Assembly (NCBI RefSeq): GCF_000576555.1
Contig: NZ_CP007145.1
Span: 558,001 to 622,000, forward strand
Length of the DNA: 64,000 nucleotides
Reading direction: 5' to 3'
Origin: Hymenobacter swuensis DY53
Lineage (GTDB): Bacteria; Bacteroidota; Bacteroidia; Cytophagales; Hymenobacteraceae
In this document: piece after piece, positions 32,083-48,849 of the stretch
How the letters are laid out: every line of letters begins with the position of its first letter
Numbering within the stretch: the stretch's first letter is position 1
Translations under genes and position numbers: made by a program
The notes under the pieces: model-generated
Seen by the model: only the letters and a program-made list of their open reading frames with translations
What the model was told of the DNA's origin: nothing
Databases searched by the model: none

Positions 32083-33495
32083 TTACAGCGCGCCGGCCAC
32101 CAGACCGGGCAGGATGCCCAGCAGTACCGTGAGGGCAGCAAGCAGCAGCAGCGCGCCGGCCTGGAAGGTAGTGACGGGCACTGCTTCGGCCGTTTCGGCG
32201 TCGGTGTCGCGCATATACATGGCAATAATGGGGCGCAGGTAGTAGTAGATGCTCACCATCGACATCACCACGGCAAACACCACGAGGCCGATGTAACCAT
32301 TCTCCACGGCGGCCGAGAATACGAAGAACTTGCCGAAGAAGCCACCCGTGAGCGGAATACCGGCCAGGCTCAGCATGGATACCGTGAGCGAGAAGGCCAG
32401 AAGCGGGTTGGTTTTCGCCAGCCCGTTCAAGCCGTTATAATCCTCGCGCTGACGGGCATCGGCCACCAGTTTCACCACCCCGAAGGCGGCCACCGTGGCT
32501 ACCGAGTAGGCCAGCGAGTAGAACAGAATACCGTTGGCGGAAGCTCCTTCCAGTTGGCCGTTGTAGGCCACTAGGGCAATCAGCAGGTAGCCGGCGTGGG
32601 AGATGCTGGAGTAGGCCAGCATGCGCTTGATGCTGGTCTGGGCCACAGCCCCCACGTTGCCGATGAGCAGCGTGAGCACGCACATAGCCGTGAGGGTAGG
32701 CAGCCAGATACCTTGGGCGTTGGCGGCCGGGAAAGCTTGCACCAGTAGCTTCAGAAAGGCAGCAAAACCAGCCGTCTTCACAATGGTGCTCATGAAGGCG
32801 GCGAAGAAGGTGGGCGTGCCTTCGTACACGTCGGGCGTCCAGAAGTGGAAAGGCGCGGCCGATACTTTAAAGCCGATACCAATCAGCATCAGCAGCATGC
32901 CAATGTAGAGCATCGGCTTCAGCGACTCGAAGCCGGGAGCCGGGTTCTGCACCGCGAAGCTGATTTCGCTCAGCACAAACGTACCGGTAGCGCCGTACAG
33001 CAGCGCCATCCCGAACAACAGGATGCCGGTGAAGAAGGCACCCATCAGGAAGTACTTGAGGGCGGCTTCGTTGGAGCGTAGGTTGCGCTTATCGGAGCCG
33101 GCCAGCACGTACATGGCCACGCTTAGGATTTCGATGCCCAGAAATAGCATCAGCAGGTGGTTGTAGCTCACCAGCATGATGGCGCCCACCAGCGAGAACA
33201 GCAGCAGCGAGTAGTACTCAGCCAGGTTGCTTTCGCCGTCGAGCACGTACTTCTGGGAGAAGGGAATCAGCACCAGCGCCGTGAGCAGCACGATGCCCGT
33301 GAAGGCCACCGAGAAGTTGTCGATGGTGAGCATGCCATTGAAGAACGACTGTGTGCTACCCCAGTCGAGGAAGTTCACCGTCAGGATACCACCCAGGATG
33401 AGCATCATCACGGGCAGCAGCAGCCGGTTGGAGCGACGGAACCCCAGGAAGAGGTTACCCAGGCCCAGAACGGAAAGTAGAATGATGGAATTCAT
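32083..33495 (-). CDS. nuoN: NADH-quinone oxidoreductase subunit N
   Basis: Complex I proton-pumping membrane subunit, 470 residues, 14 hydrophobic segments. The Mrp-antiporter-type core is recognisable (NHLLMLFLGIEILSVAMY, SISHAGYLLIA, GIPLTGGFFGKFFVF). It is the last gene of the distal unit nuoKLMN, which ends at the 32023 terminator. Confidence 0.95.
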   Translation of the reverse strand: MNSIILLSVLGLGNLFLGFRRSNRLLLPVMMLILGGILTVNFLDWGSTQSFFNGMLTIDNFSVAFTGIVLLTALVLIPFSQKYVLDGESNLAEYYSLLLFSLVGAIMLVSYNHLLMLFLGIEILSVAMYVLAGSDKRNLRSNEAALKYFLMGAFFTGILLFGMALLYGATGTFVLSEISFAVQNPAPGFESLKPMLYIGMLLMLIGIGFKVSAAPFHFWTPDVYEGTPTFFAAFMSTIVKTAGFAAFLKLLVQAFPAANAQGIWLPTLTAMCVLTLLIGNVGAVAQTSIKRMLAYSSISHAGYLLIALVAYNGQLEGASANGILFYSLAYSVATVAAFGVVKLVADARQREDYNGLNGLAKTNPLLAFSLTVSMLSLAGIPLTGGFFGKFFVFSAAVENGYIGLVVFAVVMSMVSIYYYLRPIIAMYMRDTDAETAEAVPVTTFQAGALLLLAALTVLLGILPGLVAGAL

Positions 33496-33507
33496 GTTCG
33501 TCTCAAT

Positions 33508-33601
33508 GTAGCGCGAACTTTGCAGTTCGCGCAGCTGCCGGATCGGTCGTGCGGCTAATATGCTAACGGCGCGGAGACGCGAACTACAAAGTTCGCGCTA
33601 C
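33508..33601. repeat. Hairpin between nuoM and nuoN
   Basis: 94-base element: left arm GTAGCGCGAACTTTGCAGTTCGCG, right arm CGCGAACTACAAAGTTCGCGCTAC (each given in two overlapping halves of fewer than 20 bases by the words GCGCGAACTTTG and AAAGTTCGCGC). The same GACGCGAA words occur in the urease hairpin at 58789-58895. Confidence 0.75.
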
Positions 33602-33605
33602 TGCT

Positions 33606-35075
33606 TTAGCGTTTAACTACCTCGTTCAGAATGTTCATCACGCTGCCTTCCGACAGGTGCAGGAACGTGTTGGGGAACATGCCAATCCAGAACACCAGCA
33701 CGATGAGCGGCACCAGCAGGGCCAGCTCGGAGCCGGTGAGGTCGGTGAAGGTTTCAGTGAACGAGGAATCGGGGCCGAGCATCACGCGCTGGAACATGCG
33801 CAGCAAATACACCGCACCCAGAATGATGGTCACGCCAGCAATAGCGCCCATCCAGGCGTTGAACTGGTACACGCCGCCCAGCAGCAGAAACTCGCCTACG
33901 AAGCCGTTGGTGAGCGGCAGCGCCACCGTGCCCAGCAGCAGCACCAGGAAGCACACCGTCAGCACGGGCGCTTTACGGGTGAGGCCGCCCAGGTCGGCGA
34001 TGTTGCGGGTGCCGGTGCGGCGCTCAATGGCGTCGGCAATGAAGAACATGCCCACCACGTTCACGCCGTGGGCCAGCATCTGAATGCTGGCACCCTGCAG
34101 ACCCATCTGGGTGAGCGAGAACACACCGGCAATCATCAATCCCACGTGTGAGAGGGAGGAGTAGGCAATCAGGCGCTTCACGTCCTGCTGGCGGATGGCA
34201 ATGATGGCACCGTAGATGATGCCGATGATGGCCAGAATCAGTACCAGGTTCTGCCAGTAGTCAACGCCCATCGGTACCACCGGCAGCAGCCAGCGCATGC
34301 AGCCGTAGATACCCATTTTCAGCATAATGCCCGAGAGCAGCATGGTGGCCGGTGCCGGAGCTTCGGTGTAGGTGTCGGGCTGCCAGGTGTGGAAGGGGAA
34401 GATGGGCATCTTTACGGCAAAGGCCGCGAAAATCAGCCAGAATACCCACATCTGCGTGTCAGCAGTCAGGTTCAGAGCGTAGAACGAGGCCAGGGCCGAG
34501 TTGTGAGCCGAGAGGCCGTCGGCCGTGGGGCCGGTCTGGAAGTAGAGGTACACGAAGCCGGCCAGCATGAACAGCGAGCCGATGATGGTGTACAGGAAGA
34601 ACTTGAATGTGATGCGGGCCCGGTTCACACCGCCCCACACGCCAGCTAGGAAGTAAATCGGAATCAGGGCCACCTCCCACATGAAGTAGAACAGGAAGGC
34701 ATCCTGGGCCGTGAACACGCCCACCAGACCGGTTTGCATGAACAGCACCAGCGCGTAGAACACCGACTCGTTTTCGAAGTTGCGGCGGAAGGCGCTCAGT
34801 AGAATCACCGGCACCAGCACGGCCGTCAGCAGCACCAGCAAGAGGCTCAGCCCGTCCATGCCCACCGCGAAGTGAATGCCGGCCGAGGGAATCCAGTTCA
34901 GGTTGAAGCTGAATTGGCCGGAGTTGTTGGCGTTGAACGTGAGGGCCGCGTAGGCCGCCAGCGCAAATTCAACCAGGGCCGCGCCTAGCGCCGGAACCCG
35001 GGCCGCACGGCCTTTGAAGAAGTGCAGCAGCAGGGCGGCCGCCACGGGCCAGAGTAGAAGAAGGACAGTCAGCAT
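33606..35075 (-). CDS. nuoM: NADH-quinone oxidoreductase subunit M
   Basis: Complex I antiporter-like pump subunit, 489 residues, 14 hydrophobic segments. The conserved GMDGLSLLLVLL, WEVALIPIYFLAGVWGG, FPFHTWQPDTYTEAPAP and YSSLSHVGLM segments carry the pump's glutamate, lysines and histidines. It lies 57 bases behind nuoL; this short junction has no long hairpin. Confidence 0.96.
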   Translation of the reverse strand: MLTVLLLLWPVAAALLLHFFKGRAARVPALGAALVEFALAAYAALTFNANNSGQFSFNLNWIPSAGIHFAVGMDGLSLLLVLLTAVLVPVILLSAFRRNFENESVFYALVLFMQTGLVGVFTAQDAFLFYFMWEVALIPIYFLAGVWGGVNRARITFKFFLYTIIGSLFMLAGFVYLYFQTGPTADGLSAHNSALASFYALNLTADTQMWVFWLIFAAFAVKMPIFPFHTWQPDTYTEAPAPATMLLSGIMLKMGIYGCMRWLLPVVPMGVDYWQNLVLILAIIGIIYGAIIAIRQQDVKRLIAYSSLSHVGLMIAGVFSLTQMGLQGASIQMLAHGVNVVGMFFIADAIERRTGTRNIADLGGLTRKAPVLTVCFLVLLLGTVALPLTNGFVGEFLLLGGVYQFNAWMGAIAGVTIILGAVYLLRMFQRVMLGPDSSFTETFTDLTGSELALLVPLIVLVFWIGMFPNTFLHLSEGSVMNILNEVVKR

Positions 35076-35132
35076 GCGTTATCTGGATGCGGATGAAGCC
35101 GGTGAAAAAGTCCGGTCCGGCCGTCAGTAGAA

Positions 35133-37079
35133 TTAGAATTTCCCGAAGTTCAGCGCCATCACCAGCACAATGCCCACCACCATCAGAATGAGGTAGGTTT
35201 CCACGGAGCCGGTTTGCACGTAGCGCAGGAGCTGACCACCGCCCATGGTCAGGCGGCCGAAGCCGTTCACGATGGGGTCGATAATGCCGTTTTCCACGTA
35301 GCGGAACAGGCCGCGCGATAGCCACATGATGGGGCGCACGAACAGGGCGTTGTAGAGCTCGTCGATGTAGTACTTGTGGTAAATTAGGTTCTCGAGGAAG
35401 CCGCGCGACTCGCCGTCTTCCACCGGGCGCACCCCGCGGCTCACGTACTGCACGTAGGCCAGAATGATGCCCAGCACACCCGCACCCACTGAGAGGCCGA
35501 TGAGCATGAGCTCGGTGGCGTGGTCGGCGTGTACGCCGAAGGCGGCCGGGTTCAACTGCTTGGAATAAGTGAACAGCGGTGCGAGGTAGTTGGCCAAGTA
35601 GGCGTTTTCCTCACCCAAGAAGAAGGGCGCGTTCATGAAACCACCCACGGCGGCCAGAATAGCCAGCACGATGAGCGGCAGCGTCATGGAAGCCGGCGAC
35701 TCGTGCAGGTGGTGCTTCTGCTCCTCGGTGCCCCGGAACTCGCCAAAGAAGGTGAGGAACAGCAGTCGGAACATATAGAAAGCCGTCAGGAAGGCAGTGA
35801 ACAAACCTACCGCGTACAGCACCTTGCTGTGCTCGAAGGCGTGCAGCAGGATTTCGTCTTTCGAGAAGAAGCCCGAGAAGGGCGGGATGCCGGCAATGGC
35901 CAGGCAGCCTACGAAGAAGGTGATGAACGTAATGGGCAGTGACTTGCGCAAGCCGCCCATGCGGCGCATATCCTGCTCGTTGCTCATGGCGTGAATCACG
36001 GAGCCCGCGCCCAAGAACATCAGCGCCTTGAAGAAGGCGTGGGTGAGGACGTGGAACAGGCTGGTGCTGTAGCCCATTACGCCCAGCGCCAGGAACATGT
36101 AGCCCAGCTGCGAAACGGTGGAGTAGGCCAGCACCTTCTTGATGTCGTTTTGAGCCAGGCCGATGGTGGCGGCAAACAGGGCCGTAGCCGCGCCGATGAT
36201 GGCAATAACTTCGAGGGTATCGGGGGCCAGCGTGAACAGCACGTTGGCGCGCAGAATCATGTAGATACCCGCCGTTACCATGGTTGCGGCGTGAATCAGG
36301 GCCGAAACCGGGGTGGGGCCGGCCATAGCGTCGGGCAGCCAAGTGTAGAGCGGCAGCTGGGCCGATTTACCAGTAGCGCCCACGAACAGCAGCAGCGTAA
36401 TGGCCGTTACCACGCCCGCGCCAATCTGCATCGTGCTGGCTTTCTGGAATACCTCGGCGTACTGCACCGAGTCGAAGGTCAGGTAAATCAGGAAGATGCC
36501 CAGCAGGAAGCCCAGGTCACCGATGCGGTTGATAATGAAGGCTTTCTTGGCGGCGTTGTTGTAGGCGGTGTTCTTGTTCCAGAAGCCGATGAGCAGGTAG
36601 GAGCAGAGACCCACGCCTTCCCAGCCGATGAACAGAATCACGAAGTTGGCGCCCAGCACCAGCACCAGCATGCTGAACACGAACAGGTTCAGGAAGCTGA
36701 AAAACTTGCCCACGTTCTCGTCGTGGTGCATGTAGCCGATGCTGTACACGTGGATCAGGAAACCCACGCCCGTCACGAGCAGCAGCATAATCAGGCTGAG
36801 TTGGTCGATCTGGTAGCTGAAGGGAATCTGCATCGAGCCGACCGAAATCCAGTCGAACAGCGTGACGGTGTACTGGTACTGGAAGTTCAGGAACAGGAAC
36901 ACCGAAATGGCGAACGAGCCCAGCACCGCCAGGCTGCTGATGGCACCGGCCACCTTGCCCGAAAGCTTGCGGTTGAGTAGCCCGTTGATCAGAAAGCCCA
37001 AAAACGGCAGCAGCGGAATAAGCACGTACAGAAACGTGGAGTACGGCGCGCCGGCAGCGGGGATTACAGTTTCTTGCAT
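35133..37079 (-). CDS. nuoL: NADH-quinone oxidoreductase subunit L
   Basis: Largest complex I pump subunit, 648 residues, with 16 predicted TM segments and the long lateral helix at the C terminus. Signatures: VTGVGFLIHVYSIGYM, GWEGVGLCSYLLIGFW, LPLYTWLPDAMAGPTPVSALIHAATMV and YSTVSQLGYMFLALG (each quoted in part). The start ATG 37079 immediately follows the word hairpin. Confidence 0.97.
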   Translation of the reverse strand: MQETVIPAAGAPYSTFLYVLIPLLPFLGFLINGLLNRKLSGKVAGAISSLAVLGSFAISVFLFLNFQYQYTVTLFDWISVGSMQIPFSYQIDQLSLIMLLLVTGVGFLIHVYSIGYMHHDENVGKFFSFLNLFVFSMLVLVLGANFVILFIGWEGVGLCSYLLIGFWNKNTAYNNAAKKAFIINRIGDLGFLLGIFLIYLTFDSVQYAEVFQKASTMQIGAGVVTAITLLLFVGATGKSAQLPLYTWLPDAMAGPTPVSALIHAATMVTAGIYMILRANVLFTLAPDTLEVIAIIGAATALFAATIGLAQNDIKKVLAYSTVSQLGYMFLALGVMGYSTSLFHVLTHAFFKALMFLGAGSVIHAMSNEQDMRRMGGLRKSLPITFITFFVGCLAIAGIPPFSGFFSKDEILLHAFEHSKVLYAVGLFTAFLTAFYMFRLLFLTFFGEFRGTEEQKHHLHESPASMTLPLIVLAILAAVGGFMNAPFFLGEENAYLANYLAPLFTYSKQLNPAAFGVHADHATELMLIGLSVGAGVLGIILAYVQYVSRGVRPVEDGESRGFLENLIYHKYYIDELYNALFVRPIMWLSRGLFRYVENGIIDPIVNGFGRLTMGGGQLLRYVQTGSVETYLILMVVGIVLVMALNFGKF

Positions 37080-37085
37080 ATAGTC

Positions 37086-37165
37086 AGGGACTTGGGGACT
37101 CAGGGACTTGGGGACTGGGACTGGTCAATACCAAGCCCCCAAGTCCCTGAGTCCCCAAGTCCCTT
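37086..37165. repeat. Word-type hairpin between nuoK and nuoL (GGGACTTG words)
   Basis: 80 bases made of AGGGACTTGGGGACTC words on the left arm and CCAAGTCCCTGAGTCCCC words on the right. Each arm is an imperfect tandem repeat and is complementary to the other. It ends three bases before the nuoK stop codon. Confidence 0.85.
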
Positions 37166-37167
37166 AC

Positions 37168-37500
37168 CTAGAATTTCAGGCGGTTGAGCAGATTAACGTC
37201 GGTATTCTGCAGGTTGCGGTAGATCATCACGATAATAGCCAGCCCGACCGCCACTTCGGCGGCGGCCACGGCCATGATGAAGAACACGAATACCTGCCCG
37301 TTGGGGTCGGCGCGATAGGCCGAAAAGGCCGTCAGCAGCACGTTCACGGCGTTCAGCATCAGCTCCACGCACATGAAGATGATGATGGCATTGCGCCGCG
37401 TGAGTACGCCCAGCACCCCGATGGAAAACAGGGCGGCGGCGAAGAAAACGTAGTACTGAAGAGGAACCGTTTGGATAACCTGCGGTATGTTCTGGTCCAT
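37168..37500 (-). CDS. nuoK: NADH-quinone oxidoreductase subunit K
   Basis: Small complex I membrane subunit of 110 residues with three TM segments and the conserved glutamates in FMCVELMLNAVN and AAAEVAVGLAI that line the proton path. ATG 37500 gives the usual length; the frame could extend to 37554 but without family similarity. It is the first gene of the distal unit and has its own -7 element at 37563. Confidence 0.95.
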   Translation of the reverse strand: MDQNIPQVIQTVPLQYYVFFAAALFSIGVLGVLTRRNAIIIFMCVELMLNAVNVLLTAFSAYRADPNGQVFVFFIMAVAAAEVAVGLAIIVMIYRNLQNTDVNLLNRLKF

Positions 37501-37562
37501 GCGGTAGCGTTGGCGGCGGAACGAAGCCCCATCGGCCGGGGCACGGCGGGGCAATTAGCTGG

Positions 37563-37570
37563 CAAAGGTA
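37563..37570 (-). promoter_or_regulatory. Putative -7 element for nuoKLMN
   Basis: TACCTTTG on the minus strand, a perfect TAnnTTTG match about 60 bases before the nuoK start. The -33 region has no clear TTTG. It gives the distal nuo genes a promoter of their own, which they need since nuoJ is 2.7 kb away behind a terminator. Confidence 0.6.
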
Positions 37571-37746
37571 TCCTGAAAATCGGAAAACGCCACCCTTTAA
37601 ATTGGCCTGATTCGGGCGTTTTCAAGGCGAAGATTCGCTGGTGAACACGCCGGTGGAGCCCTAGCCGGACCTTTTTCGCGGTAGGTATAGCCGCTCCCGT
37701 AGCCAAACCGTACTTTAGCACTTCCGCCACCGCAACTTATTGCCTC

Positions 37747-38208
37747 ATGAGTATTACCATTGGCAGCTTAGCTGAGCTGCAACAGTACGAGGGCCAGGAC
37801 CTCGGCATCACGCCCTGGCACACCATCACGCAGGAGCAAATCAACCAGTTCGCCGCCGCTACCCTGGATTTCCAGTGGATTCACACCGACCCCGAGCGGG
37901 CCGCCGCCGAGTCGCCGTTCGGGGGCACTATTGCCCACGGCTACCTCACGCTGTCGTTGCTGCCCTACTTTTGGAACCAGCTAGTGCAGGTGGAAAACCT
38001 GAAGATGCAGGTGAACTACGAAATCAGCGAGTTCCGCTTCAACCAGGCCGTGTTGGTAAACACGCCCGTGCGCCTGCATGCCAAGCTGCTGGCCGTGAAA
38101 GATTTGCGCGGCATCGCCAAAGCCAACATCGGCGTGACGATGGAAATTGAAGGCCAGAAGAAGCCCGCATACACCGGCGTTATTACGTTCCTGTACCACT
38201 TTTTATAG
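37747..38208 (+). CDS. MaoC-family hot-dog dehydratase
   Basis: A 153-residue hot-dog protein. The hydratase-2 motif is visible: D41 and H46 in LDFQWIHTD followed by GGTIAHGYLTLSLL, the active-site pattern of (R)-specific enoyl-CoA hydratases. It probably hydrates enoyl thioesters, but the NodN-like subgroup has no settled role. It lies alone on the plus strand in the cassette that separates nuoJ from nuoK; a near-match TACTTTAG at about 37709 may be its -7 element. Confidence 0.85.
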   Translation: MSITIGSLAELQQYEGQDLGITPWHTITQEQINQFAAATLDFQWIHTDPERAAAESPFGGTIAHGYLTLSLLPYFWNQLVQVENLKMQVNYEISEFRFNQAVLVNTPVRLHAKLLAVKDLRGIAKANIGVTMEIEGQKKPAYTGVITFLYHFL

Positions 38209-38225
38209 GAGGGATTTCGTAGAAT

Positions 38226-38346
38226 GGTCATTCCGAGCGAAGGCGGAGCCGTAGCCGAGGGATCTCGCCAGCGTAGTAATCAATCGTATTACAACGTCAG
38301 CACGCGAGATTCCTCGGCTACGGCTCCGCCTTCGCTCGGAATGACC
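38226..38346. repeat. Dispersed palindromic repeat, copy 4
   Basis: 121-base near-perfect inverted repeat: GGTCATTCCGAGCGAAGG on the left, CTTCGCTCGGAATGACC on the right, with inner CACGCGAGATTCCTCGGC. It precedes the sigma factor gene, which has another copy behind it. Confidence 0.9.
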
Positions 38347-38420
38347 GTTTCAATGACTTTGAATAAAATTTCTGCTCCCCGATAAAGTATCTTCCGGCGC
38401 TTCCCGTCTGTGTCAGCAGA

Positions 38421-39026
38421 ATGGAACCCCTAGCTCTACCACTCGACGCTGCACGCATGACGGCCGGCCACCAGGACCTGCAGATACAGGAAGCCGTGCG
38501 CACCCAACGGAAGCGTCTGCTGACGTTTATCCGCCGCCGCATCCCCAACGAGGCCGAGGCTGAAGACGTGCTGCAGGACGTGTTTGCTGAACTTGTGGAA
38601 AGCTACCGGCTGATGAAGCCCGTAGAGCAGGCCGCCGCTTGGCTGTTCCGGGTCGCCCGTAACAAAATCACCGACCTCTACCGCCGCAAAAAGCCCGTTT
38701 CGCTGGAAAACGAAATGGCCGCCTTTGCTGCCGACGGCGACGAAAACTCGTTGCTGCTGGCCGATATCCTGCCGGCTGTAGATGACGCGCCCGAAAACCG
38801 CCTGCTGCGCGAAACCCTCATGGAAGCCCTCAGCGACGCCTTGGCCGAGCTGCCCGCCGCCCAGCGCGAAGTCTTCATCTGGCACGAGCTGGAAGACAAA
38901 ACCTTCCGCGAAATGGAGGAAGAAACCGGCGTGCCGCTCAAAACCCTGATTTCGCGCAAACATTATGCCGTGCAGCACCTGCGCAAACGCCTCCGCACGC
39001 TCTATACCGAGCTGTTTACGGACTAG
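38421..39026 (+). CDS. RNA polymerase sigma factor, sigma-70 (ECF-like)
   Basis: A 201-residue ECF-type sigma factor. Region 2 covers about 28-92 (RLLTFIRRRI, AEDVLQDVFAELV, AWLFRVARNKITDLYRRKK); an acidic linker follows; region 4 is at about 137-195 (LPAAQREVFIWHELEDKTF, REMEEETGVPLKTLISRKH). A short membrane protein gene follows but no recognisable zinc-finger anti-sigma factor, so its control is open. It is bracketed by two copies of the palindromic repeat. Confidence 0.88.
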   Translation: MEPLALPLDAARMTAGHQDLQIQEAVRTQRKRLLTFIRRRIPNEAEAEDVLQDVFAELVESYRLMKPVEQAAAWLFRVARNKITDLYRRKKPVSLENEMAAFAADGDENSLLLADILPAVDDAPENRLLRETLMEALSDALAELPAAQREVFIWHELEDKTFREMEEETGVPLKTLISRKHYAVQHLRKRLRTLYTELFTD

Positions 39027-39030
39027 TTTT

Positions 39031-39154
39031 CGTCATGCTGAGCATGTGGCATCAAGCCAGTGTGCACAGCCGTAGTCGAAGCCTCTCTGCCGCTTCGTTG
39101 CAATGGTAGTTGATTAGCCAGAGGCAGAGATGCTTCGGCAAGCTCAGCATGACA
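39031..39154. repeat. Dispersed palindromic repeat, copy 5
   Basis: 124 bases: CGTCATGCTGAGCATGTGG on the left, GCTTCGGCAAGCTCAGCATG on the right. It uses the CATGCTGAGC variant of the arm. It begins four bases after the sigma factor stop. Confidence 0.85.
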
Positions 39155-39177
39155 CGTTCTTCTAAAAACCACCCAAA

Positions 39178-39543
39178 ATGAACCGTTCCTTCCGCCTGCT
39201 ACACGGCCTCAAAATACTGCTGCTGATTACGCTGTTTCTGGCCGTGGCCGGCTACGTAACTATGCGCCTCTGGAACTGGCTGCTGCCCGACCTGTTCAAC
39301 CTGCCTCTCATCAGCATCTGGCAGGCGCTGGGGCTGCTGGTGCTTTCGCGCATCCTGTTCGGGGGCTGGGGCGGCCGCGGCCACCGCGCCGGCTGGGCCC
39401 GCAAGCGCCGCCAATGGAAGCAGCAGATGGAAACCCGCCTAGAGTGCCTCACGCCCGAGGAAAAGGAGAAATTTCGCCAGAAAATGGAAGGCGTCTGCAC
39501 CGGCCCCGCCTGGATGCGCCGCCGCAGCCCGGAAGTGGAATAG
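39178..39543 (+). CDS. Small two-TM protein behind the sigma gene, unknown
   Basis: A 121-residue protein with hydrophobic segments at about 10-30 and 43-60, then a Gly/Arg-rich stretch (GGWGGRGHRAGW) and a basic-acidic helix with LTPEEKEKFRQKMEG. The last motif recalls the LTPEQ helices of Spy/CpxP-like periplasmic chaperones, a weak resemblance. Its position after the sigma gene suggests a partner role, possibly controlling sigma activity at the membrane, but the sequence does not show it. Confidence 0.6.
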   Translation: MNRSFRLLHGLKILLLITLFLAVAGYVTMRLWNWLLPDLFNLPLISIWQALGLLVLSRILFGGWGGRGHRAGWARKRRQWKQQMETRLECLTPEEKEKFRQKMEGVCTGPAWMRRRSPEVE

Positions 39544-39553
39544 GCGGTGTTTG

Positions 39554-39617
39554 ATACGCCCAATAACCAGCAGCGGCCCCCGAGTAATCGGGGGCCGCTG
39601 CTGGTTATTGGGCGTAT
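39554..39617. terminator. Perfect 30-base-arm hairpin shared by two convergent genes
   Basis: Arms of exactly 30 bases are perfectly complementary around a GTAA loop (left arm begins ATACGCCCAATAACC). The stop codon and last codons of the minus-strand gene at 39605 lie within the right arm. It has no long T run, so termination is plausible but not certain. Confidence 0.75.
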
Positions 39618-40126
39618 TGTGTTAGTAGCTGCGTACGGTCGGCGGGGCGCTCTACCTGCGTCATAGCTAGCAGAAAATGGGCGAAGCGTACCTCATCGAT
39701 TTGAATCATGCCCAGGGAAATATTTAGCTCCTGAAACCCTAGCTCCCGGGAAAGCTGGGCCAGTGCTTGGCCTACGGTGCCTTTTGTACGGGAGGGCTCG
39801 AACTCAGCCGGAACTACCAAGCACAGGATCTTCTGGCCGTGTATGCTCACCAGGTAGGCATTCTGAATAATGTCCCAGTTGATAAAGCTGTGGTAAGTGG
39901 TGCGGTCAAAGATGCCGACTTCGTTGATAATAATTTGGGGGCGCCGGTCCAGCAGCTGAAAAAGTCCACCCGGTATTCCTAGCCCGAAAAAACCAATGCA
40001 TGCCCACGCCACCCATGATGGAGTGCCGGGCTGACGTAACAGAAAAGTGCCCAATGCCACAAAGGCACTGCTGCCCAGCAATAGTTTCACGGCTCGCCAA
40101 GGCGATTTGTAGAGCTTGATTTCCAT
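39605..40126 (-). CDS. STM3941-like membrane protein
   Basis: A 173-residue protein: a short polar N terminus, two hydrophobic segments (about 15-60), then a PH-like domain with QIIINEVGIFDRTTYHSFINWD and a C-terminal helical tail. The pattern resembles the STM3941 family, of unknown function. The protein at 23576-24031 has the same plan. The stop codon lies in the hairpin at 39554-39617. The gene sits between nuoJ and nuoK and runs in the nuo direction but behind a terminator. Confidence 0.7.
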   Translation of the reverse strand: MEIKLYKSPWRAVKLLLGSSAFVALGTFLLRQPGTPSWVAWACIGFFGLGIPGGLFQLLDRRPQIIINEVGIFDRTTYHSFINWDIIQNAYLVSIHGQKILCLVVPAEFEPSRTKGTVGQALAQLSRELGFQELNISLGMIQIDEVRFAHFLLAMTQVERPADRTQLLTQYAQ

Positions 40127-40137
40127 AGTACGAACAT

Positions 40138-40715: not shown

Positions 40716-40729
40716 GGAGAAGTGTGTTT

Positions 40730-40807
40730 TGTCATTCCGAGCAAAGCGAGGAATCTGAGGGTTGTTAAATAGGATAATTCAGATTCCTCGTTTTGCTCGG
40801 AATGACA
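40730..40807. repeat. Dispersed palindromic repeat, copy 6 (nuoI/nuoJ)
   Basis: 78-base inverted repeat with TGTCATTCCGAGCAAAGCG and CGTTTTGCTCGGAATGACA arms, inner GAGGAATCTGA / CAGATTCCTC. It fills most of the junction. Confidence 0.9.
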
Positions 40808-40816
40808 CGAGAATCA

Positions 40817-41386: not shown

Positions 41387-41420
41387 ATAATCAGTTACGA
41401 AAACTGTCGGGATGATGGGC

Positions 41421-41512
41421 CGTCATGCAGAGCGCAGCGAAGCATCTCGCATGCGCCGTTAGCTGGTAGCACAACGTCAGCACGCGAGATGCTTCGCTGC
41501 GCTCTGCATGAC
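41421..41512. repeat. Dispersed palindromic repeat, copy 7 (nuoH/nuoI)
   Basis: 92-base inverted repeat with CGTCATGCAGAGCGCAGCG / CGCTGCGCTCTGCATGAC arms and CACGCGAGATGCTTCG inside (CATGCAGAGC arm variant). Confidence 0.9.
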
Positions 41513-41535
41513 AGACGCGGGCAGTTTAAAGGTAC

Positions 41536-42615: not shown

Positions 42616-42621
42616 GTTTTT

Positions 42622-42711
42622 TAGCTGTTAGCTACCAGCTGTTGGCTGTTAGCTTGATGTTCGGGTAAGTAGCAAAGAAAGCCAACAGCTAACAGCCATC
42701 AGCTAACAGCC
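42622..42711. repeat. Word-type hairpin between nuoG and nuoH (AGCTGTTAG words)
   Basis: 90 bases: AGCTGTTAGCTACCAGCTG and TTGGCTGTTAGCT words on one arm, GCCAACAGCTAACAGCC and ATCAGCTAACAGC on the other. It ends six bases before the nuoG stop. Confidence 0.85.
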
Positions 42712-42716
42712 GAAAA

Positions 42717-43718
42717 TCAGTTGCCTAATTTCAGCGGTGGGTTCTTCTGCAGGTCGCGCTGGGTGCTTTCGGGCAGGTCGGCTACTACCGATTGGTTGAG
42801 AACCGGCAGTTCGTAGTGGTTGGCCGAAATAACCGAAGAACGGTCGATGTGGGCAGGGCCCTCGATGGTCCAGTCGGAAGTTTCCTTTTTCTCGAAGCGG
42901 CACTCGTTGCAGATCCACTCCTTCACCTCGCCGTACTGGTCCTTGCGGGCCGTGGTACGTAGCACGTCGTTGCCTTTATACCAGAGCACCACGTTGCCGG
43001 AGCACTTGGGGCAGTCACGGTGGGCATTCACGGGCTTCGTGAACCACACGCGCGACTTGAAGCGGAACGTCTTATCGGTCAGGGCACCTACCGGGCACAC
43101 GTCGATGACGTTGCCGGAGAAGTCGTTGTCGATGATGTTCTCGATGTAGGTGCCGATTTCGGCGGCATCACCGCGGCCCAGCACGCCGTGCACCCGGTTA
43201 TCGGTAATTTGGTTAGCAGTGTACACGCAGCGGTAGCACAGGATACAGCGCGTCATGTGCAGCTGAATCAGCGGGCCAATGTCGATTTTCTCGAAGGTGC
43301 GGCGCTCTTCCTGGTAGCGGGTGGTGCTCACGCCGTGCTCGAAGGCGAAGTTCTGCAGATCACACTCGCCGGCCTGGTCGCACACGGGGCAATCCAAGGG
43401 GTGGTTGATGAGCAGCATCTCCACGATGCCCTTGCGCACGTCCAGCACCTGCGGGTTGGTGGTGTTTTCCACCACCATGCCATCCTGTACTGGTGTCACG
43501 CACGAGGCCACCAGCTTGGGCATGGGGCGCGGGTCTTTGGCCGAGCCGGCCGCCACGCGGACGAGGCAAGCACGGCACTTACCACCCGATCCTTTCAGCG
43601 GGGTATAGTAGCACATGGCCGGGGGCACGATGCTGCCGCCAATCTGGCGGGCCGCATTCAGGATGGTGGTTCCGTCCGGAACTTCCACCTCGATGCCGTC
43701 GAAAGTTATTTTAGCCAT
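42717..43718 (-). CDS. nuoG: NADH-quinone oxidoreductase subunit G, short form
   Basis: Peripheral-arm iron-sulfur subunit of only 333 residues, against roughly 700-900 in most bacteria. N1b [2Fe-2S]: C36, C48, C51, C73. N5 [4Fe-4S]: H106, C110, C113, C119. N4 [4Fe-4S]: C158, C161, C164, C208. The N7-like ligand pairs C236/C239 and C270/C273 remain, but the frame stops about 60 residues later, before the molybdopterin-oxidoreductase fold. Such short NuoG proteins are usual in Cytophagales and Flavobacteria, so this is probably not a truncation. Confidence 0.93.
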   Translation of the reverse strand: MAKITFDGIEVEVPDGTTILNAARQIGGSIVPPAMCYYTPLKGSGGKCRACLVRVAAGSAKDPRPMPKLVASCVTPVQDGMVVENTTNPQVLDVRKGIVEMLLINHPLDCPVCDQAGECDLQNFAFEHGVSTTRYQEERRTFEKIDIGPLIQLHMTRCILCYRCVYTANQITDNRVHGVLGRGDAAEIGTYIENIIDNDFSGNVIDVCPVGALTDKTFRFKSRVWFTKPVNAHRDCPKCSGNVVLWYKGNDVLRTTARKDQYGEVKEWICNECRFEKKETSDWTIEGPAHIDRSSVISANHYELPVLNQSVVADLPESTQRDLQKNPPLKLGN

Positions 43719-43730
43719 TGGTCAGTTTTG

Positions 43731-43830
43731 TCATCCTGAGCGGAGCGAAGGACCTTATCACGTCCGCGCCCCGGTATGTACTAATCCTGAAGAACGCAGC
43801 GGTGATAAGATGCTTCGTTCCTCAGCATGA
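43731..43830. repeat. Dispersed palindromic repeat, copy 8 (nuoF/nuoG, divergent)
   Basis: 100 bases: TCATCCTGAGCGGAGCGAAG on the left, GCTTCGTTCCTCAGCATGA on the right. The inner part does not match the other copies well. Confidence 0.7.
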
Positions 43831-43840
43831 GGTTCTAAAG

Positions 43841-45181: not shown

Positions 45182-45201
45182 AGGTTCAGAGCTGAAAGAC
45201 G

Positions 45202-45771
45202 TTAGTTGTTGGCCACTGCGTTCGGGAGGCCGTTTTCTTCCCAGGGCAGGGCCGGGCGGTGCACCTGGTTGCGCAGCTCCGTGAGCATGGCGTCCACGGC
45301 TTCCGGGGTATCAAGCTGCTCGTAGTATTTCTCGCGTACCTGCACGATGGGGGCGAAGCCGCAGGCGGCCAGGCACTCCACTTCCTTCAGGGTAAACAGG
45401 CCATCTTCGGAAGCCGGGCCGCCTACTTTGGCACCCGTGATGCGCTCCAGGTGGGCCGTCAGTTCGTCGGAGCCGCGCAGCATGCAGGGGCCCGTGCGGC
45501 AGATTTCCAGCACGTGCTTGCCGACTGGCTTGAGGTTGAACATGGTGTAGAACGACGACACCTCGTACACCTCAATCGGGGCCACGCCCAGCACTTCGGC
45601 CACCAGATCCTGCACTTCGGGGCTCACCCAGCCGCCAAATTCGGCCTGGGCAATGTGCAGCACCGGCAGCATAGCCGATTTGCGGCGCTCCTCCGGGTAT
45701 TGCTTGCAGATGCGCGCAATTTCAGCCTTCGCGGCTTCGGAGAATTGCGGCTTGGTAGCAGTCGATTCCAT
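45202..45771 (-). CDS. nuoE: NADH-quinone oxidoreductase subunit E
   Basis: Thioredoxin-fold subunit of 189 residues holding the N1a [2Fe-2S] cluster, with ligands C91, C96, C133 and C137. Start ATG 45771 is chosen because the 15 residues before it overlap the nuoD tail. The gap to nuoD is 22 bases, with no room for a hairpin. Confidence 0.95.
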   Translation of the reverse strand: MESTATKPQFSEAAKAEIARICKQYPEERRKSAMLPVLHIAQAEFGGWVSPEVQDLVAEVLGVAPIEVYEVSSFYTMFNLKPVGKHVLEICRTGPCMLRGSDELTAHLERITGAKVGGPASEDGLFTLKEVECLAACGFAPIVQVREKYYEQLDTPEAVDAMLTELRNQVHRPALPWEENGLPNAVANN

Positions 45772-45793
45772 ATCAGTTGTATTCAGCAAAAAA

Positions 45794-47062
45794 CTACGCG
45801 TCGAGCTCCCCGGCAATTACGTTCATCGACGACAGCGTCACGATGGCGTCGGAGAGGGTCTGGCCCACCACCATTTCGGTGTAGGCCTGGTAGTAGATGA
45901 AGCAGGGCCGGCGGAAATGCAGGCGGTAAGGGGTGCGGCCGCCGTCGGACACGAGGTAGAAACCCAGTTCGCCGTTGCCGCCTTCCACCGAGTGGTAGAC
46001 CTCGCCCACGGGCGCGTCAATCTCACCCATCACAATCTTGAAGTGATAGATGAGGGCCTCCATGTTCTGGTACACGGCCTGCTTGGGCGGCAGGTAGAAG
46101 TGCGGCGCATCGGCGTGGTAGGGGCCTGCGGGCAGGTTTTCCAGCGCCTGCGTGATGATGCGCAGGCTCTGCCAGATTTCCTCATTGCGCACCATGAACC
46201 GGTCGTAGGTGTCGCCCTTGGTGCCTACCGGAATTTCAAACTCGAAGTCTTGGTAGCTGGAGTAAGGGTTCATCACCCGCACGTCGTAATCGACGCCGGC
46301 GGCGCGCAGGTTGGGGCCGGTGAAGCCGTAGTTGAGGGCGCGTTCGGCCGAGATGCCGCCCACGTCCACCACGCGGTCCATGAAGATGCGGTTGCGGTTG
46401 AACATCTTCTCGAACTCCGCCATCACGGCCGGGAAGGTCTTCAGCCAGGCGCGCAGCTTGGCAATGGCCACGTCGGAGAAGTCGCGCTCCATGCCGCCCA
46501 CGCGGCCCATGTTGGTGGTGAGGCGGGCGCCGCTTACTTCCTCGTAAATCTCGTACACCTTCTCCCGCTCATCCATGAGGTAGAGGAAGCCGGTGAAAGC
46601 GCCGGTATCCACGCCCAGAATGCCGTTGCAGATCAGGTGGTCGGTGATACGGGCAAGCTCCATCAGGATAACCCGGATGTACTGGGCGCGCTTGGGTACT
46701 TCCACCCCCAACAGCTTCTCCACCGTCATGTGCCAGCCCATGTTGTTGATGGGCGACGAACAATAGTTCATGCGGTCCGTCAGGGGCGTAATCTGGTAGA
46801 AGGGCCGGCGCTCGGCAATCTTCTCGAAGGCGCGGTGGATGTAGCCAATGGTGGGCACACCCGCCACAATCCGCTCGCCGTCCATCTGCAGAATGTTCTG
46901 GAAGATGCCGTGGGTAGCGGGGTGCGTGGGACCCAGGTTTAGCGTGGTGAGCTCCTGGTTGAAGTCGTTGACGGTCGGGGCCAGCGGGTTCAGCCGCGGC
47001 TCCTGCTCCCGGGCCGACTCAATGATTTTATGGGTGCCTTCCAGCGTGTCGTTTACTGCCAT
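45794..47062 (-). CDS. nuoD: NADH-quinone oxidoreductase subunit D
   Basis: The 49-kDa-type subunit, 422 residues, descended from hydrogenase large subunits and lining the quinone site. Key segments are NLGPTHPATHG with the quinone-site histidine, IGYIHRAFEKIAE, YCSSPINNMGWHMTVEKL and the C-terminal DAIVTLSSMNVIAGELD. NuoC and NuoD are separate here, unlike the fused form in enterobacteria. Confidence 0.96.
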   Translation of the reverse strand: MAVNDTLEGTHKIIESAREQEPRLNPLAPTVNDFNQELTTLNLGPTHPATHGIFQNILQMDGERIVAGVPTIGYIHRAFEKIAERRPFYQITPLTDRMNYCSSPINNMGWHMTVEKLLGVEVPKRAQYIRVILMELARITDHLICNGILGVDTGAFTGFLYLMDEREKVYEIYEEVSGARLTTNMGRVGGMERDFSDVAIAKLRAWLKTFPAVMAEFEKMFNRNRIFMDRVVDVGGISAERALNYGFTGPNLRAAGVDYDVRVMNPYSSYQDFEFEIPVGTKGDTYDRFMVRNEEIWQSLRIITQALENLPAGPYHADAPHFYLPPKQAVYQNMEALIYHFKIVMGEIDAPVGEVYHSVEGGNGELGFYLVSDGGRTPYRLHFRRPCFIYYQAYTEMVVGQTLSDAIVTLSSMNVIAGELDA

Positions 47063-47067
47063 CTGGT

Positions 47068-47154
47068 TTGGTGCTTAGTGCTCAGTGCTTTGTGCTTAGT
47101 AATCAGGTCTGATTTTGTTGCCTATGCACCAAGCACAAGGCACTAAGCACTAAA
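47068..47154. repeat. Word-type hairpin between nuoC and nuoD (TGCTTAG words)
   Basis: 87 bases: TTGGTGCTTAGTGCTCAGTG and TTTGTGCTTAGT on one arm; GCACCAAGCACAAGGCACTA and AGCACTAA on the other. The words are imperfect tandem repeats. It ends four bases before the nuoC stop. Confidence 0.88.
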
Positions 47155-47157
47155 AAA

Positions 47158-47721
47158 CTATCGTCCGAAGAACAGGTCGGTTTTGTCTTCGCGGGTGCCG
47201 TCTTCCAGGGCGTACTCCTTGCGCATCGGGTGGTAGTCCATGTCCTCCACGTTGAGGATGCGCATGAGGTTGGGGTGGCCGGGGAAGATGATGCCGTAGA
47301 AGTCGAAAGCCTCGCGCTCCATCCAGTTGGCGGTGGCGTAGAGGTCGGTCAGGGTCGGGGCAACCGGGTCGGCAATCGGGAAGAAGATCTTCAGGCGCAG
47401 CCGGATGTTCTGGGTGAGGCTGTGCAGGTGGTACACAATACCCAACTCCTGGTCCTTCCTCTCGGGCCAGTGCATGCCGCACATGGTAGTCAGGAAGTTG
47501 AGCTGGAGCTCTTCGTCCTTCTGCAGACCTTCGATGATGCCGTGAATCTGCTCCCGGGTGGTGGTGGCGGTCAGCAGGCCGTAGGGCTCCTCCACGTCGG
47601 TGAAGGCATCGGCCCCGAACAGGCGGTGCAGCAGAGCCAGCAGCTGCGCGTTTTTCTGCGCGGCCGGGTCCTGGGCGGCAGCCTGTTCCTGAGCCGGGAT
47701 GGATTCGTTCTGGTCAGCCAT
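47158..47721 (-). CDS. nuoC: NADH-quinone oxidoreductase subunit C
   Basis: The 30-kDa-type subunit, 187 residues. The conserved MEREAFDFYGIIFPGHPN and LRILNVEDMDYHPMRKEY segments are present, as is a variable N-terminal Gln/Ala-rich stretch. It carries no cofactor and connects the dehydrogenase and quinone modules. Confidence 0.95.
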   Translation of the reverse strand: MADQNESIPAQEQAAAQDPAAQKNAQLLALLHRLFGADAFTDVEEPYGLLTATTTREQIHGIIEGLQKDEELQLNFLTTMCGMHWPERKDQELGIVYHLHSLTQNIRLRLKIFFPIADPVAPTLTDLYATANWMEREAFDFYGIIFPGHPNLMRILNVEDMDYHPMRKEYALEDGTREDKTDLFFGR

Positions 47722-47727
47722 TTTTAT

Positions 47728-47814
47728 GGTAGAGCTTAGAGCTTAGATGATAGAGCTTAGAAGTTAAGGGAGCCGAACTGCCTAAGTTCTAAGCTCTATC
47801 GTCTAAGCTCTAAA
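47728..47814. repeat. Word-type hairpin between nuoB and nuoC (AGAGCTTAG words)
   Basis: 87 bases: TAGAGCTTAGAGCTTAGATG and ATAGAGCTTAGAAGTTA on one arm, TAAGTTCTAAGCTCTATC and GTCTAAGCTCTA on the other. It ends about six bases before the nuoB stop. Confidence 0.88.
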
Positions 47815-47820
47815 ATCAGC

Positions 47821-48375
47821 TTACTTGATGTTGTACGACGCCAGCAGGGCCTGATACTCGGGCGAGTTGCGGCGGCGGAAGGATTCGTTTTTGGCCAGGT
47901 CCTGGATGCGCATCAGGCCGTCGAGCACCTGCTCGGGGCGGGGCGGGCAGCCGGGCACGTACACGTCCACCGGAATGATCCGGTCGATGCCCTGGAGCAC
48001 GGAGTAGGTATCGAAGATGCCGCCCGAGGAGGCGCAGGCACCCATGGCCAGCACCCAGCGGGGCTCGGCCATCTGCTCGTACACCTGCTTCACGATGGGA
48101 GCCATCTTCTTGGCGATGGTGCCCATCACCATCAGCAAATCGGCCTGCCGAGGCGAGAAGCTGGGACGCTCCGAACCGAAGCGGGAGATGTCGTAGCGGG
48201 AGCCCATGGTGGCCATGAACTCGATGCCGCAGCAGGAGGTAGCGAAGGGCAGGGGCCAGAGCGAGTTGGCGCGGGCAATGCCCACCACTTTCTCCAGGGA
48301 GGTAGCAAAGAAGCCGGCGCCTTCGAGGCCGTCGGGCGCGTCTACCGTTTTGATTTCAGGAACTCGGGTATCCAT
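47821..48375 (-). CDS. nuoB: NADH-quinone oxidoreductase subunit B
   Basis: Subunit holding the N2 [4Fe-4S] cluster next to the quinone site, 184 residues. Ligands are the tandem cysteines C48/C49 (SCCGIEF), C114 (GACASSGG) and C143 (VPGCPPRPE). Eighty-one bases separate it from nuoA, without a clear long hairpin. Confidence 0.97.
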
Positions 48376-48456
48376 GAGAGCAAGTCAGATTTGGGAAGCG
48401 GCGACGCTTCAGAAAGGCAACATCCGGCCGGGGCCAAAGGTTGCCGCCACCAGGGC

Positions 48457-48849
48457 TTAACGGGCTTCGTTCCAGCGTAGAACGCCTTTTTTGATAACGT
48501 AGGCGAAGCCAGCCATCAGCAAAGCCAGGAATACAATCATCTCGTAGAAGCCGGTGGTGCCCAGCTGGCGGAAGTTCACGGCCCAGGGGTACATGAAGAT
48601 GACTTCCACGTCGAAGAGCACGAACAGGATAGCCGTGAGGAAGTATTTCACCGAAATCGGGGTGCGGGCGTTGCCCACCGACTCGATGCCGCACTCGAAG
48701 GCTTCATCCTTCACCACGCTCTTGCGGCGCGGGCCCAGCAGGTGAGACGTAATCATGGCGAAGGCCACGAAGGCCACGGCCAGCACAAACTGCACCACGA
48801 TGGGCAGGAAATCCTGGGGCTGATATTGGGTCGGAACGGCGAGAAGCAT
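48457..48849 (-). CDS. nuoA: NADH-quinone oxidoreductase subunit A
   Basis: First gene of the complex I unit: 130 residues, three TM segments, with the FECGIESVGNARTPISVKYF loop (in part) and the acidic residues in FDVEVIFMYPWAV that belong to the proton-transfer path. ATG 48849 is preferred over upstream codons that overlap the promoter region. Confidence 0.95.
   Translation of the reverse strand: MLLAVPTQYQPQDFLPIVVQFVLAVAFVAFAMITSHLLGPRRKSVVKDEAFECGIESVGNARTPISVKYFLTAILFVLFDVEVIFMYPWAVNFRQLGTTGFYEMIVFLALLMAGFAYVIKKGVLRWNEAR

What the first reader, a model, noticed from the sequence alone, without database searches (positions are those of the whole stretch)
32083..48849. Complex I genes punctuated by hairpins at nearly every wide junction
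Inspected junctions: A/B 81 bp (only a weak GGCAAC/GTTGCC pair), B/C 99 bp (word hairpin 47728-47814), C/D 95 bp (word hairpin 47068-47154), D/E 22 bp, E/F 20 bp, F/G 122 bp (palindrome 43731-43830), G/H 101 bp (word hairpin 42622-42711), H/I 149 bp (palindrome 41421-41512), I/J 101 bp (palindrome 40730-40807), K/L 88 bp (word hairpin 37086-37165), L/M 57 bp, M/N 110 bp (hairpin 33508-33601). Every junction wider than 85 bp is filled by a long hairpin of one of two classes, and no hairpin appears in shorter gaps. Inference: the hairpins may set mRNA processing or relative subunit stability, or simply accumulate where they do no harm, but their regular presence between genes of one complex is not what neutral insertion alone predicts.
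Basis: seen in the sequence. Interest (0 to 1): 0.75.

Follow-up and report, generated by a model that had tools for sequence, protein, structure and literature searches.

The report
Swappable hairpin cassettes between complex I genes
The gaps between respiratory complex I genes in this Hymenobacter bacterium really are filled by long DNA hairpins, but these are interchangeable repeats of several unrelated kinds that differ between close relatives and are sometimes shared nearly letter for letter with more distant ones, so no fixed mRNA-processing device is needed to explain them.

Summary
Eight nuo junctions of 88-149 bp each contain a long hairpin. They are several kinds, not two: GTCAT-tagged inverted pairs (F/G, H/I, I/J), a GTAG-tagged REP pair (M/N), and 'word' hairpins of 7-nt (B/C, C/D, G/H) or 8-nt (K/L) repeats.

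In 72 nuo loci (71 relatives plus the window), 242 of 316 gaps of 85-170 bp have a stem score of 12 or more; 0 of 178 scored gaps under 40 bp do.

New here: each junction is a slot. Close relatives carry unrelated hairpins in one slot (window vs nearest relative: 5 of 8 differ), while some more distant pairs share 93-100% identical ones. In 20 such distant pairs the matching block is the gap plus short flanks, 101-212 bp in all. A slot in the ATP synthase operon looks alike.

Arms diverge about three times slower than loops, yet mismatches show no G-U preference and the mRNA strand is not the better folder, so RNA-level selection is unsupported. Element number in nuoA-J ranges from 0 to 7 between loci.

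Best reading: palindromic extragenic elements, exchanged as short cassettes and filtered by selection. Function is unproven.

The parts
47736..47813 (.). nuoB/C word hairpin (words TTAGAGC, period 7), arms 47783-47813 and 47736-47766, 16-nt loop
47075..47153 (.). nuoC/D word hairpin (words TTAGTGC, period 7), arms 47131-47153 and 47075-47097
   Evidence: 99% identical gap in Hymenobacter duratus (L010)
43731..43830 (.). nuoF/G inverted pair with a GTCATCCTGAGC end (REP-like); stem broken, score 11
   Evidence: 98% identical gap in L010
42622..42711 (.). nuoG/H word hairpin (words TTAGCTG, period 7)
   Evidence: gap 88% identical to L012
41422..41512 (.). nuoH/I GTCATGCAGAGC inverted pair (REP-like), 33-bp arms 97% complementary
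   Evidence: 98% identical gap in L010
40730..40807 (.). nuoI/J GTCATTCCGAGC inverted pair (REP-like), 29-bp arms 97% complementary
   Evidence: 98% identical gap in L009; tag present 97 times in the genome
40142..40175 (-). perfect 17-bp inverted repeat plus T6 after nuoJ: intrinsic-terminator-like, end of the nuoA-J unit
37086..37164 (.). nuoK/L word hairpin (words GGGACTTG, period 8)
33508..33601 (.). nuoM/N inverted pair of GTAG-tagged REP units (GTAG + 8-bp stem CGCGAACT/AGTTCGCG, loop TTGT)
   Evidence: GTAGCGCGAA present 69 times in the genome against 0 for the reversed control
45772..45793 (-). nuoD/E gap, 22 bp, no hairpin; 16-25 bp in the 64 loci (of 68) with a short gap
48376..48456 (-). 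nuoA/B gap of 81 bp without a hairpin (52 of 68 loci have a 40-170 bp gap without an element, 11 of 68 are under 40 bp)

Best explanation
The nuo hairpins are extragenic palindromic elements of several unrelated families (GTAG-tagged REP pairs, GTCAT-tagged REP-like pairs, heptamer/octamer 'word' hairpins, C-rich hairpins) lying between stop and start codons. Each junction is a slot with many alternative alleles. Alleles are replaced wholesale between Hymenobacter species, sometimes by horizontal exchange of a very short patch anchored in the flanking genes, so close species differ and distant ones can match. Shown: the elements, their dispersal, the slot-wise turnover, the short shared blocks, slow arms and fast loops. 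Inferred: that exchange is by homologous recombination; that arm complementarity is kept at the DNA level rather than for an mRNA structure; and that selection mainly decides where an element is tolerated (not D/E, not in the one ribosomal-protein region looked at).
For: Dispersal in the genome: GTCATNCNGAGC 349 copies vs 10 for the reversed control, GTAGCGCGAA 69 vs 0, TTAGCTGTTAGCT 6 vs 0.

Gap widths: at C/D filled gaps have median 114 bp, 15 bp after taking off the hairpin, and unfilled ones 18 bp; likewise E/F 19 vs 27, F/G 39 vs 46, H/I 41 vs 35.

Turnover: distinct cassettes at 80% identity are B/C 38 of 60 filled loci, C/D 20 of 43, F/G 29 of 47, G/H 31 of 48, I/J 29 of 40. In 22 sister pairs: filled-filled different 56, same 19, both filled but not clustered 4, filled/empty 36, both empty 107. 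Window vs L009 (third-position identity 0.903): 5 of 8 slots differ, one of the three matches being at the 0.80 limit.

Exchange: B/C of L033 and L048 is identical over 81 bp although third positions are 75% identical; C/D of L012 and L040 is 99% vs 77%. In the 20 pairs with gap identity of 0.93 or more and third positions below 0.80, the first flanking mismatch is a median 12 bp upstream and 26.5 bp downstream, and gap plus both runs is 101-212 bp. In 15 of them the nearest 30 bp upstream are 0.907 identical against 0.821 in 298 non-sharing pairs, and near background beyond. 45 of 60 shared cassettes are not monophyletic on the nuo tree. Loop orientation is kept in 162 of 162 same-junction loop matches.

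Arms vs loops: word cassettes 383/5000 vs 669/3157 differences, REP 607/9547 vs 1483/5591, others 47/489 vs 48/307. No RNA signal: G-T 81 vs A-C 76 mismatches in word stems with equal arms, 20 vs 40 in REP, 37 vs 35 in other hairpins, and the sense strand is not more stable.
Against: The source of new cassettes is not found: the central 36 nt of word hairpins recur at another place in 1 of 109 cases (REP 23 of 124), so recent transposition is not shown for word hairpins. At B/C, G/H, I/J, K/L and M/N unfilled gaps (median 80, 61, 63, 106, 47 bp) are wider than filled gaps minus the hairpin (14, 17, 12, 28, 21 bp), which simple insertion into a short gap does not predict. Element class is strongly junction-specific (word:REP-like B/C 50:1, F/G 5:39; chi-square p = 7e-20), which random insertion from one pool would not give; related loci share alleles, so this p overstates independence. 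The G-U test has little power in very stable stems (mean about -42 kcal/mol for word gaps), and among single-side stem changes between related word cassettes 197 keep a pair (G-U included) and 157 do not (two-sided: 18 keep, 30 do not). Strong constraint on a whole cassette could mimic exchange in single pairs, and some closer pairs share longer blocks (17 pairs with third positions of 0.80 or more: 109-527 bp). The tree is built from nuo genes, which may themselves be mosaic. The 0.8 rule favours gaps that look conserved; with it 181 of 188 homologous pairs exceed third-position identity.
Confidence: 0.65

Rival explanations
1. The slots are functional mRNA hairpins whose sequence is free: any strong hairpin spanning stop to start couples, insulates or tunes translation of the next subunit, so alleles may be swapped as long as a hairpin stays.
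For: Word hairpins span almost exactly stop to start: median 3 nt after the stop codon and 7 nt before the start codon. B/C holds an element in 60 of 68 loci with 38 different cassettes. In the atpF/H slot 20 of 29 genomes have a stem score of 12 or more and 28 of 29 either that or a 7/8-nt period, in 25 clusters. Gaps tend to be either short or element-filled. Arms diverge about three times slower than loops. Initiation in Flavobacterium johnsoniae is tuned by structure near the start codon (PMC6847099, passages).
Against: No G-U over A-C preference and no sense-strand stability advantage. Element number in nuoA-J ranges from 0 to 7 in 64 loci. A/B stays unfilled in 63 of 68 loci, median 73 bp. 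At C/D the stop-to-start fit also follows from placing an element of about 95 bp into a gap of about 18 bp.
Confidence: 0.25
2. Plain neutral accumulation: transposable REP-like palindromes land anywhere harmless, and nuo simply has gaps that tolerate them.
For: The families are dispersed genome-wide. Elements are called in 54 of 152 tandem gaps of 85-160 bp and only 10 of 93 divergent gaps of 85-600 bp. REP centres recur at other places in 23 of 124. Y1 transposase matches occur in 43 of 61 Hymenobacter genomes.
Against: Class is junction-specific. Stems of 12 or more: D/E 0 of 67, B/C 57 of 68. The window's own genome has no Y1 transposase match. Word-hairpin centres do not recur elsewhere (1 of 109).
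Confidence: 0.2
3. In-situ concerted evolution: one ancestral word hairpin per slot keeps changing its word by slippage and template switching, which also keeps the arms complementary.
For: 109 word gaps show best lag 7 (103) or 8 (6) among lags 5-12, with 49 different heptamer consensuses. A clean 7-nt indel appears within one B/C cassette group. Template switching can create and maintain stems (PMC8794818, abstract).
Against: Within alignable cassettes arms are the slow part (0.077 vs 0.212), the opposite of fast word conversion. Loop inversion, described as a product of template switching between repeat arms (PMC8604942, abstract in the listing), is seen in 0 of 162 same-junction loop matches.
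Confidence: 0.15
4. The hairpins are transcription terminators or attenuators.
For: They are strong stem-loops downstream of stop codons.
Against: A T4 run within 9 nt after the stem is seen in 0 of 109 word, 6 of 124 REP, 1 of 13 GTAG, 0 of 12 C-rich and 1 of 57 other hairpins. The terminator-like hairpin in the window follows nuoJ.
Confidence: 0.04

Closest known systems
GTAG- and CGTC-tagged REPs and their dimers (Di Nocera 2013, PMC3733652; abstract, passages and section 15 seen)
   Same: Tagged palindromes in inverted pairs, dispersed, mostly between co-directional and convergent genes and downstream of coding regions. The M/N unit has the GTAG tag and an 8-bp stem.
   Different: The GTCAT-type arms lack the 8-9 bp unit stem of CGTC REPs (fold z 0.02-0.27). 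Slot-by-slot replacement between species is not in the parts I saw. The own genome has no Y1 transposase match.
Heptamer direct repeats, e.g. TAACTGA (MacGregor 2015, PMC4679880; abstract and section 10 seen); cyanobacterial STRR repeats (recalled)
   Same: Intergenic 7-nt tandem words, some in Bacteroidetes, with indels in 7-nt steps reported for Cyanothece.
   Different: Here the words form inverted arrays that pair as hairpins, with 49 heptamer consensuses; TAACTGA is described as direct repeats of one word, with one indirect repeat in the main genome.
Intergenic-region switching / horizontal regulatory transfer (Piggy, PMC5890482; passages seen)
   Same: Non-homologous intergenic alternatives between the same two genes, incongruent with gene trees.
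   Different: The passages treat strains of S. aureus and E. coli and regulation of downstream genes; here the switched pieces are hairpins inside operons, between named species, with identical blocks of 101-212 bp in distant pairs.
Template-switch creation and upkeep of hairpins (PMC8794818; abstract seen)
   Same: A DNA-level route that keeps stems complementary without RNA selection.
   Different: No loop inversion was found here (0 of 162).

Membership tests
GTAG-tagged REP (M/N hairpin) | GTAG tetranucleotide next to a short palindrome | tested here: met
   GTAG + CGCGAACT TTGT AGTTCGCG, fold z -5.4
GTAG-tagged REP (M/N hairpin) | high-copy, dispersed | tested here: met
   GTAGCGCGAA 69 copies, reversed control 0
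GTAG-tagged REP (M/N hairpin) | RAYT/Y1 transposase in the genome (hypothesised mobiliser, not part of the repeat itself) | tested here: not met
   PF01797: 0 in own genome; 43 of 61 Hymenobacter genomes have a match; flanking of those genes by GTAG repeats was not tested
CGTC-tagged REP (F/G, H/I, I/J) | CGTC/TGTC tag at the outer ends of an inverted pair | tested here: met
   GTCAT...ATGAC at H/I and I/J, the base before it C or T on three of four ends seen; at F/G one end reads GTCAT and the other CTCAT
CGTC-tagged REP (F/G, H/I, I/J) | 8-9 bp stem within each unit | tested here: not met
   three single arms folded, z 0.02 to 0.27; so called REP-like, not filed as a member
Heptamer tandem repeats (STRR / TAACTGA kind) | intergenic 7-nt tandem repeats | tested here: met
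   best lag 7 in 103 and 8 in 6 of 109 word gaps; shuffles reach 18/28 at most against the cut of 20
Heptamer tandem repeats (STRR / TAACTGA kind) | a characteristic word used as direct repeats | tested here: not met
   49 consensus words; 97 of 109 word gaps have a stem score of 12 or more, i.e. inverted arrays
Intergenic-region switching | non-homologous gap sequences between the same gene pair in relatives | tested here: met
Intergenic-region switching | distribution incongruent with the gene tree | tested here: met
   45 of 60 shared cassettes not monophyletic, word cassettes 17 of 21; nuo-gene tree, so not a full species tree
Intergenic-region switching | effect on expression | not testable with these tools
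   no transcript data
Intrinsic terminator | T-run after the stem | tested here: not met
   T4 within 9 nt: 0 of 109 word, 6 of 124 REP

The most novel reading that the evidence does not exclude
Hymenobacter carries a distinct class of extragenic element, inverted arrays of an arbitrary 7-nt word, that occupies fixed slots between genes of nuo and atp. The slot demands a hairpin but not a sequence, and alleles travel between species as cassettes of about 100-200 bp, coupling or insulating translation of subunits that must be made in balance.
Probability: 0.22. Interest if true: 0.8.

Novelty: new variant of a known kind. Interest (0 to 1): 0.55.

Why it matters
It shows a genus in which the spaces inside an essential operon evolve as sets of interchangeable hairpin alleles, replaced even between close species and partly shared across species lines. 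That makes two questions directly testable: whether an operon needs 'a hairpin, any hairpin' at a junction, and how patches of only about 100-200 bp come to be shared between species. It also warns that a hairpin at the same junction in relatives is not by itself evidence of a conserved RNA element.

Tried and rejected
Rejected: a complex-I-specific device (similar slot in the atp operon, and elements at many other gaps). Terminators. RNA-level selection by G-U versus A-C and by sense versus antisense stability: the antisense strand was even slightly more stable for word (p 0.0008) and REP (p 6e-9) gaps. Loop inversion by template switching (0 of 162). Y1/RAYT mobilisation by the window's own genome. 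Rfam at gathering scores: one match in the window, 5_ureB_sRNA, away from the hairpins. Stop-codon trap idea: 121 of 139 word gaps have stops in all three frames against 90.6 expected from shuffles; suggestive only, not pursued.

Literature: ten searches of open-licence PMC papers; the listings are capped (for example 15 of 381). No listed title or abstract start dealt with Hymenobacter hairpin slots, and one search found no paper with its four terms. That is not proof of absence from print.

Weak points: own gene caller for control gaps (it gave the nuo B-N and 173-aa gene boundaries in use; the nuoA start differs). nuo was picked by a reader, so the control p is optimistic. 'Element' classes count repeat motif or word period as well as stems (97 of 109 word and 96 of 124 REP gaps have a stem score of 12 or more). 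Several loci are MAGs or share an assembly (L039/L059; L051/L065 same sampling series; L060/L062 same strain label), and L046 is labelled only Hymenobacteraceae, so loci are not all independent species. In one search pairs at K/L, L/M and M/N and pairs with any flank block below 0.55 were dropped.

Full report
WHAT WAS CHECKED. The window lies in a 5.25-Mb genome whose nuo genes group with Hymenobacter. NCBIfam and Pfam confirm nuoA-J and nuoK-N on the minus strand. Seven have stem scores of 15-30, above every dinucleotide shuffle (maximum 10-12, 600 shuffles at each of four lengths); F/G scores 11, within the shuffle range, but carries a repeat end found genome-wide. Between nuoJ and nuoK lie 2.7 kb with four other genes, and the 76-bp gap after nuoJ has a terminator-like perfect hairpin with T6, so the cluster looks like two transcription units.

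WHAT THE HAIRPINS ARE. M/N is an inverted pair of GTAG-tagged REP units: tag, 8-bp stem, fold z -5.4, 69 copies of GTAGCGCGAA genome-wide against 0 for the reversed control. F/G, H/I and I/J are inverted pairs with GTCATNCNGAGC ends, 349 copies against 10. They carry the tag of CGTC REPs, but a single arm does not form the 8-9 bp stem that defines those (definition from PMC3733652, passages), so I call them REP-like. B/C, C/D, G/H and K/L are word hairpins: both arms are tandem arrays of a short word. In 109 such gaps across the relatives the best lag is 7 in 103 and 8 in 6, none other from 5 to 12, 97 of them with a stem score of 12 or more, with 49 heptamer consensuses. In the own-genome sample outside nuo 29 periodic gaps were found, 17 of period 7 and 12 of period 8; not all of them are clear hairpins.

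WHY WIDE MEANS HAIRPIN. In 72 loci (71 public Hymenobacter or Hymenobacteraceae loci of the 80, plus the window; 718 junctions without J/K), a stem score of 12 or more is reached in 0 of 178 scored gaps under 40 bp (181 in all), 28 of 168 of 40-84 bp, 242 of 316 of 85-170 bp and 5 of 53 wider ones. C/D is either about 18 bp or about 114 bp, and gap minus hairpin is 15 bp; E/F, F/G and H/I behave alike. There the width is the element. At B/C, G/H, I/J, K/L and M/N the 6-26 unfilled gaps are wider (medians 47-106 bp) than filled gaps minus hairpin (12-28 bp), which I cannot explain by insertion alone; decayed elements are possible. The E/F gaps over 170 bp (17 of 69) contain a small ORF instead.

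IS NUO SPECIAL? In 864 kb of the same genome, 54 of 152 tandem gaps of 85-160 bp outside nuo have an element, 10 of 93 divergent gaps of 85-600 bp, and 42 of 57 convergent gaps of 40-160 bp. nuo with 8 of 8 by the same rules is enriched (p 0.0004), with the caveat that it was picked for being striking. The two gene runs around ribosomal protein L14 have gaps up to 71 bp and no element. In the atp operon, between the 165-aa and about 117-aa genes (taken as atpF/atpH by size and position beside the ATP-synt_A match), 29 of 30 loci have a gap of 60-140 bp: 20 of 29 have a stem score of 12 or more, 16 pass the strict and 26 a looser 7/8-nt period test, 2 are REP-like, one (L124) has neither, and they form 25 clusters.

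SLOTS WITH SWAPPED ALLELES. At 80% identity, B/C has 38 cassettes in 60 filled loci, C/D 20 in 43, F/G 29 in 47, G/H 31 in 48, H/I 9 in 16, I/J 29 in 40, K/L 21 in 31, M/N 12 in 16. The window and its nearest relative L009 (third-position identity 0.903) differ at 5 of 8 slots, yet the window matches L010 at C/D, F/G and H/I (98-99%) and L009 at I/J and M/N (97-98%). Distant pairs can be identical: L033 and L048 at B/C, 81 bp, with third positions 75% identical; these two are sisters on the nuo tree, so here strict constraint is the alternative. In all 20 pairs with gap identity of 0.93 or more and third positions below 0.80, gap plus identical flanks measures 101-212 bp (median 164.5; first mismatch a median 12 bp upstream and 26.5 bp downstream, against 0 and 14 bp in 382 non-sharing pairs of third-position identity 0.74-0.80). 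In 17 closer pairs it is 109-527 bp. Flank identity is raised in the nearest 30 bp upstream only (0.907 in 15 pairs against 0.821 in 298). Of 60 shared cassettes 15 are monophyletic. All 162 same-junction loop matches keep orientation. The central 36 nt of word hairpins recur at other places in 1 of 109 against 23 of 124 for REP, and at the same junction in another species in 41 of 109 and 52 of 124. I read this as short-patch exchange and descent within a slot, not fresh transposition, for word hairpins.

WHAT KEEPS THE ARMS. Within shared cassettes, arms differ at 383/5000 sites and loops at 669/3157 (word), 607/9547 and 1483/5591 (REP), while third positions differ at about 0.26 and 0.30. 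If the mRNA hairpin were selected pair by pair, G-U should be preferred to A-C mismatches on the sense strand. They are equal in word stems (81 to 76) and reversed in REP stems (20 to 40), and the sense strand is not more stable. Counts of stem changes are mixed: in word cassettes 197 single-side changes keep a pair and 157 do not, two-sided 18 and 30; in REP 304 and 317, 34 and 48. With stems this strong these tests have limited power, so they lower but do not exclude an RNA role.

PLACEMENT. Stems of 12 or more: D/E 0 of 67 scored, A/B 4 of 68, B/C 57 of 68; D/E stays 16-25 bp in 64 of 68. Class is junction-specific (word to REP-like: B/C 50:1, F/G 5:39). Selection or allele-pool history must act at the level of the slot. 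Word hairpins run from a median of 3 nt after the stop to 7 nt before the start, which would allow translational coupling (mechanism recalled, not tested) but is also what an element filling a short gap would give.

VERDICT. The mRNA-processing reading is not supported. The REP part is known in kind; intergenic switching is known in kind (PMC5890482, passages); heptamer repeats are known in kind (PMC4679880, abstract and one section). The combination, position-conserved slots filled by sequence-free heptamer hairpins and partly shared in short patches between species inside respiratory operons, I did not see in the listings of my ten searches.

Noticed in passing
L014, L015, L019, L025, L027, L028, L047, L052, L059, L063, L066, L067, L068, L072, L076, L077, L079: nuoE/F gap of 208-389 bp: A small ORF, with a start like MDDRNKDLPLIVSEILIEMHEMK in several loci (read by eye), sits between nuoE and nuoF in these 17 of 69 loci where others have a short gap or a word hairpin; a similar small ORF seems to sit at H/I in L018.
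   Followed up: partly
window 37500-40126: nuoJ and nuoK are separated by MaoC-like, sigma-70-like and two short unnamed genes; several relatives (e.g. L012, L024, L033) show no nuoK-N within the fetched flank.
   Followed up: no
window 42717-43718: NuoG is only 333 aa, matching positions 1-260 of the 606-position NuoG model.
   Followed up: no
window 60282-60576 (-): Rfam 5_ureB_sRNA match (111 bits) antisense to a 581-aa ORF; may reflect coding conservation rather than an sRNA.
   Followed up: no
L084 (G/H, H/I, I/J), L083 (I/J), L082 (K/L): Hairpins, some with word-like arms, also occur at nuo junctions in a Cytophagaceae MAG, Fibrella and a Chitinophaga MAG.
   Followed up: partly
word hairpins of the 72 nuo loci: 121 of 139 word gaps have a stop codon in all three sense frames against 90.6 expected from shuffles.
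   Followed up: partly
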